Source of the DNA: Akkermansia muciniphila
Lineage (GTDB): Bacteria > Verrucomicrobiota > Verrucomicrobiia > Limisphaerales > BJHT01
Direction: 5' to 3'
Length of the DNA: 58,033 bases
NCBI GenBank assembly: GCA_945861535.1
Contig: CAMAUZ010000047.1
Span: forward strand, 1-58,033
The first letter of the stretch is position 1; every line of letters begins with the position of its first letter. Below, in pieces: positions 36,633 to 56,767 of this stretch. The position numbers and the translations under genes were made by a program. The notes under the pieces were generated by a model that saw only the letters and a list, made by a program, of their open reading frames with translations, was not told the origin of the DNA and ran no database searches.

Positions 36633-37136
36633 CCGCTCGGGCAATCCCGACCGCGGCCCGGCCCACGCCGGTTTCCGGCTGGCCGGTGGTCACGCAACCT
36701 CCCGCGCCCGCTTCCTCGCCTCCGCTTCGTGCCGGAGGCACGCAAGAAATTAGCCGGTGGTGAAGCGTAGCGGAACCACCGGACCCACCGCCCCAACCCA
36801 ACCGTGCGCCCCTGCGGGGCGCGAGAGGCATGAACCCCGCCGACGCTCGGCCTTTCCGCCCGCCCGCGCCCACGCAGTTGCCCCGGGGCGGACGCGGTAA
36901 CAATGCCGAAGCATTGGGATGGCGCGGCGGCGGCGGGGTTTCGCAGTTCTCGCGCCCCGCCGGAGCGCAGCGCTTTTGGGTGCGGTCTTTCCGGTGGTTC
37001 CGCTGCGCCCCACCACCGGCTAATATCTTGCGTGCCAGCGGCACGACGCCGAGGCGAGGCAGCGCGCGGTCCATGCGGTGGCAGCATGCGGACAGCCGGC
37101 CATCGACGTGGTCCGCTCTGATCGCGGTCCGGGAGA
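36633..37136. other. Gap holding repeat family F copy 1
   Basis: No gene; see the family F element at 36727-37046. The last 90 bases before the zwf start show no clear promoter. Confidence 0.55.
36727..37046. repeat. Family F long-TIR element, copy 1
   Basis: About 320 bases with terminal inverted repeats of about 57 bases. Left: TCGTGCCGGAGGCACGCAAG, then AAATTAGCCGGTGGTGAAGC, then GGAACCACCGG. Right: the matching inverted CCGGTGGTTCCGCTGCG, then CACCACCGGCTAATATCTTG, then GCACGA. The interior holds a further GCGCCCCTGCGGGGCGC palindrome. The second copy is at 47302-47651. Confidence 0.85.
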
Positions 37137-41330: not shown

Positions 41331-41447
41331 GGTTACTTTTGGGCGATGCAGTCCGGCGTTGGTACGGCATCGTCCGGGAAATGGCAAACCTTGATGACAA
41401 ACAATTCCAACGACGATGGGCGGGCGGCAGCCGCGCACTGTCCCCCG

Positions 41448-41602
41448 TACCGCAGACTTCCAAGTCTGCTGTATCGCCGATTTCTAAATCGGCAGAGGCC
41501 ACGGGTTTTCGGGCGCGTGCGACAAGGCGAGAGTTGGCCGGTGCCCGGACGGCCCGCGGGTTTGGAAACCCGCGATACAGCAGACTTGGAAGTCTGCGCT
41601 AC
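41448..41602. repeat. Family C palindromic element, copy 1
   Basis: About 155 bases with inverted ends GTACCGCAGACTTCCAAGTC and GACTTGGAAGTCTGCGCTAC plus CTGTATCGC / GCGATACAG. The second copy, at 53432-53587, is inside a coding sequence. The rest of the 41331-41711 gap has no gene. Confidence 0.85.
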
Positions 41603-43790: not shown

Positions 43791-44037
43791 GTAGCCACCG
43801 ACGTGAGGAGTCGGATTTCCCCGCAATTCGCGTGCGTTCCATCCGCCTGCCAACGTACGGTACCGCAGGCGTCTCGCCTGCGAGTTCGCGGGGCGTCTCG
43901 CCCCGAGTCGAAACGGGCGGCGAGACGCCTGCGGTACCACGACCTCGGCCCGCCCGCTTGCCGCGCCCCACGCAGGTACGATGGCCCCATGCTGCGCCTT
44001 CTCTTGGCGCTCGGGTTCTCCTCACGTCGGCGGCTAC
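43791..44037. repeat. Family H composite element, copy with nested family B
   Basis: Left end GTAGCCACCGACGTGAGGAG and right end CTCCTCACGTCGGCGGCTAC. It shares CCGCCTGCCAACGTAC and GATGGCCCCATGCTGCGCC sub-ends with 18570-18902. Confidence 0.85.
43859..43938. repeat. Family B palindromic element, copy 1
   Basis: Ends GGTACCGCAGGCGTCTCGCC and GGCGAGACGCCTGCGGTACC are a perfect inverted pair, with an inner GGGGCGTCTCGCCCC palindrome. Copy 2 is at 53593-53697. Confidence 0.9.
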
Positions 44038-47017: not shown

Positions 47018-47870
47018 GCGGGGAGGTGAAGCTCAAAATTCAAAGCTCAAAGTTCAAGGGAAGCAGCAAGAACCAGGTTCCTACGCGATCGGCAAAGGGT
47101 GGGCGGATCTCAGTTTATTGCAGACGGCCTGCTTCGCCGTTCCAGCCCGGCGGGCGAAAGAAAATAGCCCAGCACTTCAGTGCTGGGTTCGCTGCGGCGC
47201 CGAACCAAGTCCCGCCAGGGACGAAAGAGTTGGTGCGCCGGTGATCGATCGGGCCCTGTGAATCTCGGCGATGATCGCCGTATCCCTTGTTCGCCGCCGC
47301 TTCGTGCCGGAGGCACGCAAGAAATTAGCCGGTGGTGAAGCGCAGCGGAACCACCGGAAAAAACACACCGAAGAGCTGCGCCCCGGCGGGGCGCGAGATC
47401 GGTGGCTCCCCGCCGACACAGCTCGCCATGGCGACGTTGCATCACTGGCGGACCTTCCGGCCTGCTGGCAACCCCGTGAGCGCGCGCCGGCCGGGAAGCC
47501 CGCGCGACGGGGAAGGTGTCGTGGAGGCGGGAGGATGGCGCGCTTTCACGGCTCTCGCGCCCCGCGGGGGCGCACGGTTGGGCGGGGCGGTATATCCGGT
47601 GGTTCCGCTGCGCTTCACCACCGGCTAATATCTTACGTGCCTCCGGCACGACACGGGACGCGCGCCAGCAAAAGGACCATGAAGGCTCCGCGCAATCAGC
47701 CTAGATTCCGATCACCGGACCGGTGCAGGCACCTTCGCCGGTCGCAACACAAACCCCGGAAACGATCCTTTTGGAAACTTGTCTCTTGCAGCTTCCCTTG
47801 AGCTTTGAGCTTTAAGCTTTGAGCTTCGCCCCCCCGCTTCCCCCCTTGCCTGCCAGGCCGCGCCGCCCCC
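47018..47870. other. Large gap filled by repeats, including family F copy 2
   Basis: More than 850 bases without a gene: AAGCTCAAAATTC-type words at 47028-47060, an AGCCCAGCACTTCAGTGCTGGGTT palindrome area at 47165-47195, family F at 47302-47651, and GAGCTTTGAGCTTTAAGC at 47800-47826. Confidence 0.7.
47302..47651. repeat. Family F long-TIR element, copy 2
   Basis: About 350 bases; its ends are nearly identical to those of 36727-37046 (TCGTGCCGGAGGCACGCAAG and GCACGTAAG-like/ATATCTTACGTGCC). The interior has CGCCCCGGCGGGGCG and CGCGCCCCGCGGGGGCG palindromes but differs otherwise. Confidence 0.85.
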
Positions 47871-51243: not shown

Positions 51244-51314
51244 CGGCGCGAGGATAAGCCGGAAAGCAATGGGGAGGGAAAGGAATCAGTTCGGCCAGGA
51301 GCGCGGCATTGGCA

Positions 51315-51421
51315 GGAGCGCGGCGTTTACGCCGCAGAAACGTGAAGACGGAGAGGAGCGGTCGGACTGGCCGGACGTTGGTTGACAGGCGGACGCCTCT
51401 GCGGCGTGAACGCCGCGCTCC
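51315..51421. repeat. Family D palindromic element, copy 2
   Basis: Inverted ends GGAGCGCGGCGTTTACGCCG and CGGCGTGAACGCCGCGCTCC. It is followed 24 bases on by a nearly identical copy (51445-51552), a tandem pair with a period of about 130 bases. Confidence 0.9.
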
Positions 51422-51444
51422 GGGCGGGGCGCGCGTGGGGCGCA

Positions 51445-51552
51445 GGAGCGCGGCGTTTACGCCGCAGAAGCGTGGAGTGGGAGAGGGCGCGGTCGGACTG
51501 GCCGGACGTTGGTTGGCAGGCGGACATCTCTGCGGCGTGAACGCCGCGCTCC
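51445..51552. repeat. Family D palindromic element, copy 3
   Basis: Same ends as copy 2; the interior (GGTCGGACTGGCCGGACGTTGG) is shared with copy 2 but not with copy 1 at 15276. Confidence 0.9.
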
Positions 51553-51611
51553 GGGCGCTGCCAGTGCTGTCCGCGCGGGCATGGAGGATCAATTTCCGCA
51601 GCGTCTCCGTT

Positions 51612-52136
51612 TCACTGCCGTCGAAAGAAAGTCTCCCGCAACGTCCCGCGCTCGGTGCGGATGACGGTCCCGACGCCGACCCGGTTGCGCTCGAACCAGC
51701 CGCGATTGGTTTCAAGGACGTACTGAATGTTGTCCGACCCCGCCGTCACGCCGGTCTCGTCGAGCCGCTTCAGTTCGCGAATCTCGACGATCACGCCCTC
51801 GGGATCGATGTAAGCCGCCGAGAGCGGCAGCACGGTGTTCTTCATCCAGAACGACGCCCGATGCGGTCCGGGGAAAACGAAGAGCATTCCCTCCATCTCG
51901 GCCATGTTCGTGCGGAACATCATGCCGCGCTCCTTCTCCTTGGGCGTAATCGCGAGTTCGGCGGTCATCTCGTGCGGGCCGAGCCAGAGCTTGAGCGTTG
52001 GGAGCTTCGGCTGGGGTTGGTCGGCGGCCGCGGCGGCGTCCGGCGCGGGTGACGGCGTGACGGTCGAGTTCTCGCAGCCCATGCCCATGCCGAGAATCAG
52101 CACGGTCAGGAGACTGATGGTTTGAAAATGTTTCAT
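51612..52136 (-). CDS. DUF192 lipoprotein
   Basis: A 174-residue protein with a signal sequence and lipobox GMGC (ILGMGMGC, Cys about 21), a short Ala/Pro linker, then the DUF192 domain: LAITPKEKERGMMFRTNMAEMEGMLFVFPGPHRASFWMKNTVLPLSAAYIDPEGVI (given in parts) with the conserved RGLMFR-like and F-WMKNT-xLPLxxxFID pattern. DUF192 is a small beta-rich domain of unknown function in secreted proteins. The ATG at 52136 is selected because the longer frame lacks signal features. Confidence 0.87.
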   Translation of the reverse strand: MKHFQTISLLTVLILGMGMGCENSTVTPSPAPDAAAAADQPQPKLPTLKLWLGPHEMTAELAITPKEKERGMMFRTNMAEMEGMLFVFPGPHRASFWMKNTVLPLSAAYIDPEGVIVEIRELKRLDETGVTAGSDNIQYVLETNRGWFERNRVGVGTVIRTERGTLRETFFRRQ

Positions 52137-52212
52137 AAAAATTCTGCCCCGAAGAACACCGCAATACGCGCCGGCAGAAGCCCGGATATTTCGAAGGCGT
52201 CCGCGCCAACCT

Positions 52213-52262
52213 GGGTGGCACAGGCTACCAGCCTGTGCCGTCCGGCGACTCGCCGGACGGAA
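52213..52262. repeat. Double short palindrome
   Basis: GGCACAGGCTACCAGCCTGTGCC followed by GTCCGGCGACTCGCCGGAC, each a hairpin, in the gap between the DUF192 and acetyl-xylan-esterase-like genes. Confidence 0.75.
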
Positions 52263-52331
52263 TGGTAGCGACGCGGTCTTGGGCAGAGCGCGCCCAAACC
52301 TAACGACGTCTCCCGCCGCGCCACCCACCGC

Positions 52332-53753
52332 CTACCGCTGCAAACTCCGCCCCAGCCACTCCACCGTCTTCGCCCACATCTCGGGCAGATACACATGGCC
52401 GAGGTCGGGATAGATCACGTTCCCAAAGTCCGCCTCGCGCTCATACAGCGCATACACCGGCTTCACGCGGCGCTCGATGAGGCGGATGCCCTCCACCGGC
52501 GACCCGTAATCCTTGTCGCCCGTCATGAACAACATCGGCCGCGGCGCGGCCAGCGCGACGATCGCCTCGGTGTCGTAGTGATTCAGCATCCCCGGCACAA
52601 AGTAATAAATGCCGTGATACTTCAGGCCCTGGGTTTTGATCAGATCCTGGTAACGCGTCAGACACGCCACCGCGACGCCGCACTTCGGCCGCTCGTCCAG
52701 CGCCATGATCCACCACGTCCGCGTCGCGCCCATGCTGATGCCCGTGACGCCGATGCGGGTCGCGTCCACCTCGGGCCGCGTGCTCAGATAATCCAGCGCC
52801 ATCAGGTCATCGCGGATGATCATCCCCCAGAGCGAACGCCCCGCCCACAGGTTGAACTTGCTCGCCGTCATCTCGCCGCCACTCCCCTTCTCCGCCGGGC
52901 CGCCCGGCCCCATGCCGTTGCGTTCGCCGAAGCAGTACGCGTCGATCCCCAGCACGACGTAGCCTTTGCGCGCCAGTTCCGGCCCCGCGGCAACCGGCGT
53001 CGCGTTGGTCTTCAGCAACTCCTCCTTGCCGATGTCGTATTGGCCTCCGTGCCAGTGGCAGTAGAGAATCGCGGGCGATTTCCCCGTCGCGTTCTTCGGG
53101 AGGAAGGCGTAACCCGGCACCGTCGCCCCCGCGCCGTTGTCGAAGGTGAATTTCTCCAAGATGAAATCGCCGCGGTCCTCGCGGCTGAGGAGCTTCACGT
53201 CCGGTCGCACGGGACGCGGCGGCATTTTTCCGAGCAAATCGCCGAGGCGCGCGCGAATCTCGAGACGCTGTTTCTCCCACGCCGCGCGCGAGACGGGCGC
53301 GACGAACTCCGGCGCGGCCGGCAGCGCAGCGAGCCAGCGGTCGGCGGTGGTGGTTTCGGTTTGTGCCATGAGCGAAGAGCCGCCGGAGAGTGCCAGCAAC
53401 AGCACCGACAGCAAGCCCGCGCGCCCGCCTTGTACCGCAGGTTTCCAAACCTGCTGTATCGCCGATTTCCAAATCGGCAGGCGCCGCGACGTTCCGGGCG
53501 CGTGCGACAAGCCGGGGCGCTGCGGGTGGTCGGACGGTCCGCGGGTTGGGAAACCCGCGATACAGCAGACTGGGAAGTCTGCGGTACCCGCGGGTACCGC
53601 AGGCGTCTCGCCTGCGAGTTCACGGGGCGTCTCGCCCCGTGTCGGAACGGGCGGCGAGACGCCGCCCGAACTCGCAGGCGAGGACGCCTGCGGTACCGGG
53701 GCAGCGCCGGACCGCACCACGCGCCGCAGGAAACCGCCAAATCGTGTAATCAT
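52332..53753 (-). CDS. Secreted acetyl-xylan-esterase/dienelactone-hydrolase-like protein
   Basis: A 473-residue open frame. The catalytic part (from about residue 130) is an alpha/beta hydrolase: [44 protein letters not shown] (nucleophile Ser in GISMGA), then [10 protein letters not shown] (acid) and LGHVYLP (His). The start region is odd: [16 protein letters not shown] is followed by about 88 residues translated from palindromic repeats B (53593-53697) and C (53432-53587), then [19 protein letters not shown], a signal core. The likely ancestral gene joined the first and last pieces as one signal peptide. A start inside the signal is an alternative. Confidence 0.8.
53432..53587. repeat. Family C palindromic element, copy 2 (inside a CDS)
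   Basis: GTACCGCAGGTTTCCAAACC and CTGTATCGC at the left; GCGATACAGCAGACTGGGAAG and GCGGTAC at the right; closely matches 41448-41602. It is read in frame in the hydrolase gene. Confidence 0.9.
53593..53697. repeat. Family B palindromic element, copy 2 (inside a CDS)
   Basis: GGTACCGCAGGCGTCTCGCC at the left and GCGAGGACGCCTGCGGTACC at the right; adjacent to the family C copy and also in frame in the hydrolase gene. Confidence 0.9.
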
Positions 53754-53830
53754 CCGCGGGTATTAACACGCCGCCGCGCCGTTTCCAAAACACTCTTGCA
53801 ATGGTCCCCTCCCCCCCTAGCGTCCTGCGG

Positions 53831-56767
<2,937 letters not shown>

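What the first reader, a model, noticed from the sequence alone, without database searches (positions are those of the whole stretch)
53432..53753. Two dispersed palindromes inserted in frame within a signal peptide region
The hydrolase frame starts with [13 protein letters not shown], runs through copies of families B and C, and then reaches the hydrophobic signal core. Both families have another copy in non-coding gaps (43859 and 41448), so these are insertions. Without them the two ends would join as a normal Sec signal. The gene may now be silent, exported with a long leader, or started inside.
Basis: partly seen in the sequence, partly recalled or inferred. Interest (0 to 1): 0.55.

Follow-up and report, generated by a model that had tools for sequence, protein, structure and literature searches.

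The report
REP palindromes wedged into signal peptide
In an uncultured verrucomicrobial genome, two copies of common bacterial palindromic repeats have landed, without breaking the reading frame, just after the start of a gene for a probably secreted enzyme; this kind of insertion is already known, but a close relative that lacks it makes this a clean example.

Summary
ORF 52332-53753 (-) encodes a 473-aa alpha/beta-hydrolase. Between codon 11 and the signal-peptide core lie a 105-bp (53593-53697) and a 156-bp (53432-53587) palindromic dimer, both high-copy REP elements built like the known GTAG class. A congeneric genome (G001) has the gene without them: 373 aa, exactly 100 codons fewer, [25 protein letters not shown] against [11 protein letters not shown]-[insert][14 protein letters not shown]. 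No REP-peptide match was found among orthologue loci (93 distinct). So insertion is supported.

"In frame" deserves less weight: five of six frames of the insert are stop-free, and its dicodon score is not coding-like (-0.14; mature part +0.62). Surveyed copies avoid gene interiors (0 of 61 here, 1 of 38 in the sister, 540 of 1000 random places); this one sits at the 5' edge of its gene, where that survey is blind. The enzyme part shows no decay (dN/dS 0.12; 7 against 6 replacements), but the insertion is undated. Which start codon is used, and whether export survives, is undetermined. Intragenic GTAG-REPs, including in Verrucomicrobiota (Opitutus terrae), were described in 2013. Verdict: new member of a known kind, modest interest.

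The parts
52332..53753 (-). alpha/beta-hydrolase ORF, 473 aa (Abhydrolase_7 / Peptidase_S9 / DLH / AXE1-like), including the insert
53726..53753 (-). original 5' end of the gene (ATG and first codons, MITRFGGFL..), homologous to the sister's MSSRFLAS..
   Evidence: alignment of 53701-53761, score 46, against a maximum of 27 in 300 shuffles
53426..53725 (.). inserted block, 300 bp, absent from the sister genome
   Evidence: the 6 bp CGCGCC stand at both borders (53420-53425 and 53720-53725), so the ends are ambiguous by 6 bp
53593..53697 (.). B-type REP dimer, ends GGTACCGCAGGCG / CGCCTGCGGTACC
53432..53587 (.). C-type REP head-to-head dimer, consensus ends GTAGCGCAG / CTGCGCTAC (this copy reads GTAC at both ends)
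53698..53725 (.). 28 bp between B and the old gene start, origin unresolved (outer REP flank or a short duplication of the target)
53361..53423 (-). signal-peptide core [21 protein letters not shown], residues 111-131
53508..53510 (-). candidate internal start, in-frame TTG (residue 82, inside the C element)
   Evidence: sequence only
53412..53414 (-). candidate internal start, in-frame TTG (residue 114, in the core)
   Evidence: sequence only
53801..56767 (+). divergent neighbour, glycine dehydrogenase gcvP
41447..41602 (.). other C-type copy in the window; flanks do not score as coding
43859..43938 (.). other B-type copy in the window (80-bp shortened form); flanks do not score as coding

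Best explanation
A 300-bp block holding two REP dimers (one B-type, one C-type, built like GTAG-type REPs) inserted between codon 11 and the hydrophobic core of the signal peptide of a probably secreted alpha/beta-hydrolase, most likely after this species split from its known congener. The reading frame stayed open because these GC-rich palindromes contain few stops and the block happens to be 300 bp long; nothing indicates that the repeats encode something selected. SHOWN: the empty site in the congener, the homologous 5' stub, the high-copy families of both repeats, no decay in the enzyme part between the two species. INFERRED: the REPs were copied in by a RAYT-type or similar transposase acting in trans (no linked enzyme found). 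ALSO INFERRED, about 0.5: the block now acts as a structured 5' leader and the enzyme is made from a start inside or after it; about 0.2 that the old ATG makes a precursor with a 100-residue longer N-terminus; about 0.25 that expression or export is lost too recently to show as decay.
For: Congener orthologue is 373 aa against 473, no insert, the two ends contiguous. Window 53701-53761 aligns to the congener's gene start (score 46; 0 of 300 shuffles reach it; maximum 27), while gcvP's upstream region gives 22, which 22 of 300 shuffles reach. REP peptide without relative in 108 upstream peptides from 109 orthologue loci (93 distinct). 268 C-arm and 73 B-arm places, controls 0. C arms keep pairing through changed stems (GGTTT/AAACC, ACTT/AAGT, GGCTT/AAGCC, ATTT/AAAT). 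Insert: 5 of 6 frames stop-free; dicodon score in frame -0.14, other sense frames -0.30 and -0.22, antisense -0.13, -0.14 and -0.33; mature part 0.62. dN/dS 0.12; 7 replacements on the window branch, 6 on the sister branch, 12 unpolarised. Copies avoid gene interiors: 0 of 61 and 1 of 38, against 540 of 1000 random places.
Against: The insertion is undated, so the 7-against-6 count may mostly reflect time before it. Only one congener is held, so loss from the congener is argued against only by more distant orthologues. Several B copies lie at or near contig ends (C23, C107, C123, C162), so these repeats seem to break this assembly and the exact 300 bp could be wrong. The coding score of the 11-codon stub is poor here (-0.18) and worse in the sister (-0.5), so it cannot tell coding from not. 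The hydrolase frame of the insert scores higher than the other two sense frames and is matched only by two antisense frames, so a weak coding signal is not excluded. The survey of gene interiors scored the two copies of this very gene as not intragenic, because the stub is short, so it cannot see insertions at a gene's 5' edge. No transposase with matching tags was found among 9.
Confidence: 0.8

Rival explanations
1. The REP block is translated and tolerated, as reported for RPE-type insertions: the enzyme is made from the old ATG with about 100 extra residues before the hydrophobic core.
For: The old ATG and its surroundings are shared with the congener; the frame is open throughout; the enzyme part is under purifying selection. 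PMC3733652 section 15 (read) cites in-vivo expression of R. conorii proteins with N-terminal RPE-1.
Against: Insert composition is not coding-like and 5 of 6 frames are open; the RNA around and after the start folds very strongly (z -7.4); surveyed copies avoid gene interiors. A core more than 110 residues in would be a poor Sec signal (established knowledge, not tested here).
Confidence: 0.2
2. The insertion silenced the gene and it is a young pseudogene.
For: The insert separates start and signal core; strong hairpins follow the start.
Against: No stop, no frameshift; pairwise dN/dS 0.12; replacement changes 7 and 6 on the two branches, 12 unpolarised. The C copy differs from the consensus of 23 others at 3 of 118 conserved columns, mid-range among 24 copies (0 to 10), so it is not visibly newer than the rest.
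Confidence: 0.25
3. Assembly artefact: unrelated sequences joined at a high-copy repeat.
For: Several B copies lie at or near contig ends; the congener has a different upstream neighbour.
Against: The piece on the far side is homologous to this gene's own start, and gcvP head-to-head with this gene is found in 4 other organisms (5 loci; two of them duplicates), so both sides probably belong together. Against this: 102 of the 110 loci showed no gcvP within the fetched flanks.
Confidence: 0.05
4. The extended N-terminus is ancestral and the congener lost it.
For: Only two genomes of the genus are held.
Against: 77 of 93 distinct orthologue loci have a stop within 100 codons upstream; no REP peptide in 108 upstream peptides searched.
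Confidence: 0.02

Closest known systems
GTAG-tagged REPs (Di Nocera et al. 2013, PMC3733652; abstract, sections 5, 15, 16 and found passages read)
   Same: Stem-loops with a GTAG tag, head-to-head dimers, several families per genome, reported as enriched in a verrucomicrobial species (O. terrae); some inside ORFs, more at the NH2 end than at the other end; clusters encoding 43-82 aa noted in Thauera and R. conorii.
   Different: Here each arm is two hairpins in a row, the cluster joins two families, the block spans 100 codons, and it separates start and core of a signal peptide. The copies in this gene read GTAC; the paper names variation at the second and third tag positions and GTGG, not GTAC. 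I could not compare with its figure 1 consensus (figures not held).
Rickettsia palindromic elements (RPE)
   Same: Palindromic repeats inserted in frame into genes that probably stay functional (passage in PMC3733652).
   Different: In the copies surveyed here insertion inside genes is not a habit: 0 of 61 in this genome. Sequence relation to RPE not tested.
Enterobacterial RU-1/2/3 repeats (PMC2759123; passages read)
   Different: There the repeat supplies signal sequence; here it splits an existing one.

Membership tests
GTAG-type REP | terminal GTAG tag next to a stem-loop, high copy (C family) | tested here: met
   268 places with GTAGCGCAG..TGTATCGC at up to 2 mismatches, control 0; 22 of 24 aligned copies start GTAG, the two window copies GTAC.
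GTAG-type REP | terminal GTAG tag (B family) | tested here: inconclusive
   B copies of this genus mostly read GTAC; three other genomes of the order read GTAGCGCAGGCG (G151, G097, G192). GTAC is not among the tag variants named in the section read.
GTAG-type REP | head-to-head dimers with tags outside | tested here: met
GTAG-type REP | stems kept by compensating changes | tested here: met
   stem variants GGTTT/AAACC, ACTT/AAGT, GGCTT/AAGCC, ATTT/AAAT seen in the listed places. RNAalifold on 24 copies gives a covariation term of only -0.02 and 4 of 54 pairs with a double change; arms hardly vary in that set and it pairs the whole dimer.
GTAG-type REP | mainly extragenic | tested here: met
   0 of 61 (own) and 1 of 38 (sister) inside an unbroken coding frame, control 540 of 1000; 2 of the 61 have the same coding frame on both sides but a stop between
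GTAG-type REP | RAYT gene flanked by the same REPs | tested here: not met
   9 Y1_Tnp loci in the genome; none holds GTASCGCAG or GCTGTATCGC within about 1.5 kb; the short linker GCGAGTTY occurs in 3 of the 9. [quoted passage not shown]
Rickettsia palindromic elements | sequence relation to RPE families | not tested
   no RPE sequence fetched
Abhydrolase_7 (PF12715) | Pfam match over cut-off | tested here: met
   39.4 bits, cut-off 21

The most novel reading that the evidence does not exclude
The REP block works as a switch of protein location: starts before it give a cytoplasmic or anchored form and starts inside it (TTG at 53508-53510, which would give a basic n-region of about 30 residues before the core) give the exported form, with the hairpins setting the ratio.
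Probability: 0.06. Interest if true: 0.55.

Novelty: new member of a known kind. Interest (0 to 1): 0.27.

Why it matters
It gives a clean before-and-after pair for how REP insertion alters the start of a probably secreted protein's gene, and a warning that continuous frames across GC-rich REPs are easily mistaken for real N-terminal extensions in annotation.

Tried and rejected
Target-site duplication of about 27 bp around the block: not supported. The alignment of the two window flanks is reached by 396 of 2000 shuffles; against the sister's 5' end it is reached by 13 of 2000; but outer flanks of another REP copy score higher (29 and 28 against 26). A 6-bp identity (CGCGCC) at both borders remains and was not tested further.

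5' stub coming from gcvP's side: rejected (score 22 against 46).

Linked transposase: 9 Y1_Tnp loci, none with C or B tags nearby.

Empty sites for other copies from 2.37 Mb of the sister: 9 of 65 copies had both flanks on one sister stretch; eight of these had 187-358 bp between, the ninth (4 bp) lies in a cluster of repeats, so no clean empty site was read.

Covariation by RNAalifold: uninformative. DUF192 as a synteny marker: dropped, because its query was translated in the wrong frame; the gcvP, acs and hydrolase queries of that call were in frame.

Literature (listings): palindromic element, in-frame, protein-coding, Rickettsia: 6 papers; repetitive extragenic palindromic with verrucomicrob: 4, one on the subject by title; REP-associated tyrosine transposase, open reading frame, signal peptide, two of three: 10,925, 12 listed; four of five terms on palindromes splitting signal peptides: 0; Opitutus terrae with palindromic: 4, none on REPs by title. 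I make no claim beyond these that the case is unpublished.

Full report
What is there. The minus-strand ORF 52332-53753 (473 aa) is an alpha/beta-hydrolase: Pfam Abhydrolase_7, Peptidase_S9, DLH and AXE1 match within residues 149-455; the best solved relatives are a SusD/RagB-associated esterase-like protein (E 6.2e-7) and a putative acetyl xylan esterase (E 2.8e-5). The enzyme part is taken here to start after LMAQ, as in the aligned relatives. Upstream lie a hydrophobic core ([21 protein letters not shown], residues 111-131), about 100 residues of odd sequence, and [11 protein letters not shown]. The odd stretch is mostly two inverted-repeat elements: B, 53593-53697, and C, 53432-53587.

The repeats. 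The genome (7.94 Mb, 169 contigs) holds 268 C-arm places at up to 2 mismatches and 73 B-arm places at up to 3, with no match for the reversed control patterns. C measures 156 bp in 20 of 31 near-full copies: GTAGC, hairpin, TGTATCG, hairpin, a spacer of moderate conservation, then the mirror image. B has the same plan with GTACC at its ends; three other genomes of the order carry GTAGC instead. Hairpin stems vary in step. The C arm is found in 36 of 156 genomes of the order (this genome and the sister included), patchily; the B arm at one mismatch in 6 of 293, the same two included. These are features of GTAG-tagged REPs and their head-to-head dimers (PMC3733652: abstract, sections 5, 15, 16 and passages read), except that the copies in this gene read GTAC, a variant not named in the section read. 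A linked RAYT was not found: 9 Y1_Tnp loci, none with C or B tags nearby.

The empty site. Of 146 genomes searched, this one included, 45 have a hydrolase match at E <= 1e-60. Its protein is 373 aa and begins [31 protein letters not shown], in plan the window's two ends without the insert. DNA homology on the core side runs to 53425. On the other side, the 69 nt 53698-53766 align best to the congener's own gene start (score 46 over 53701-53761; 300 shuffles gave at most 27), and not to gcvP's upstream region (22; reached by 22 of 300 shuffles). The block is thus 53426-53725, 300 bp, 100 codons. In the congener gcvP lies on another contig and an acs gene stands upstream of the hydrolase. Among the 110 orthologue loci gcvP is head-to-head with the hydrolase in the window's own and in 5 others, two of which (L041, L136) are the same sequence, so 4 organisms; 102 loci show neither neighbour within the fetched flanks. 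From the shared adjacency I infer that the congener was rearranged and that the window's two sides belong together.

Orthologues. Of 110 loci (30 from the genome search, 80 from genome contigs) one is the window. Of the other 109, 89 have an in-frame stop within 100 codons upstream of the anchor, 17 are open longer and 3 run off the locus. The REP peptide was compared with the 108 upstream peptides longer than 20 residues and finds nothing better than E 0.57. After removal of duplicates: 93 distinct, 77 short, 14 long, 2 at an edge.

Does the frame mean anything? Little. Five of six frames of the block are stop-free; 16 of 26 near-full B copies are open in all six frames and the other 10 in five; the 31 C copies are open in two to six frames (5, 9, 14, 2 and 1 copies). 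So, by inference, something like one insertion in four of such a block would keep the frame. The dicodon score of codons 12-112 is -0.14 in the hydrolase frame, -0.30 and -0.22 in the other sense frames, -0.13, -0.14 and -0.33 antisense, against 0.62 for the mature part. Surveyed copies avoid gene interiors: 0 of 61 in this genome (4 more too near an edge) and 1 of 38 in the sister (3 more at an edge) lie in an unbroken coding frame, against 540 of 1000 random places in the sister; 2 of the 61 have the same coding frame on both sides with a stop between. Two limits: the copies are the best-scoring ones that the searches returned, not all; and the two copies of this gene count as not intragenic in the survey, because the 11-codon stub is too short to score, so it does not see 5'-edge insertions. 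The single sister case is again near an N-terminal edge, in an FdhD gene (REP at residues 20-55 of the open frame, domain from 84); this genome has no match to that FdhD at E <= 1e-30.

Is the gene alive? Between the two species the mature part has dN 0.040, dS 0.32, ratio 0.12; of 25 replacements, 7 fall on the window branch, 6 on the sister branch and 12 cannot be placed. There is no sign of decay, but the insertion is undated. The window C copy differs at 3 of 118 conserved columns, mid-range among 24 copies (0 to 10). The RNA of 53380-53770 folds far more strongly than shuffles (-232.6 against -186.8 kcal/mol, z -7.4, 0 of 100 shuffles as strong). In-frame start codons after the old ATG are TTG at residue 82 inside C, then TTG 114, GTG 117, TTG 119 and ATG 129. 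None could be tested.

Judgement. The insertion and its nature are well supported; its effect is open. I lean to an internal start with the block as a structured leader, because the block is not coding-like while the enzyme is conserved, but this is inference. [quoted passage not shown] terrae, more at the NH2 end than at the other end, and warns that many of these may be extragenic because translation may start downstream.

Noticed in passing
window 52101-52340: The gap after the hydrolase stop holds a pair of hairpins that look like another repeat family (CGTCCGGCGAGTCGCCGGACG, GGCACAGGCTGGTAGCCTGTGCC); in the congener the same gap holds a B-type REP dimer. Copy number of these hairpins was not searched.
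   Followed up: partly
window 51293-51557: Tandem pair of about 130-bp units, each with GGAGCGCGGCGTTTACGCCGC and GCGGCGTGAACGCCGC inverted repeats, beside the DUF192 gene.
   Followed up: no
L307:3568-4644 (sister genome): FdhD ORF with a B-type REP dimer in frame near its N-terminal edge (residues 20-55 of the open frame) before the Pfam domain; no match to it in the window's genome at E <= 1e-30.
   Followed up: partly
L069:756-2029: A Y1_Tnp-type transposase locus (match 1501-1734) with seven hairpins of the type CTCGACATTSSAATGTCGAG, some imperfect, on both sides, possibly a REPtron of another family.
   Followed up: no
window 36711-36783 and 47286-47358; 36921-37047 and 47526-47652: Two further repeat families in the same order and nearly the same spacing about 10.6 kb apart.
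   Followed up: no
own and sister copies: Coding flanks next to the surveyed REPs begin more often than they end: 30 against 15 in this genome, 17 against 13 in the sister, unlike the mostly downstream location reported in PMC3733652 (abstract).
   Followed up: no
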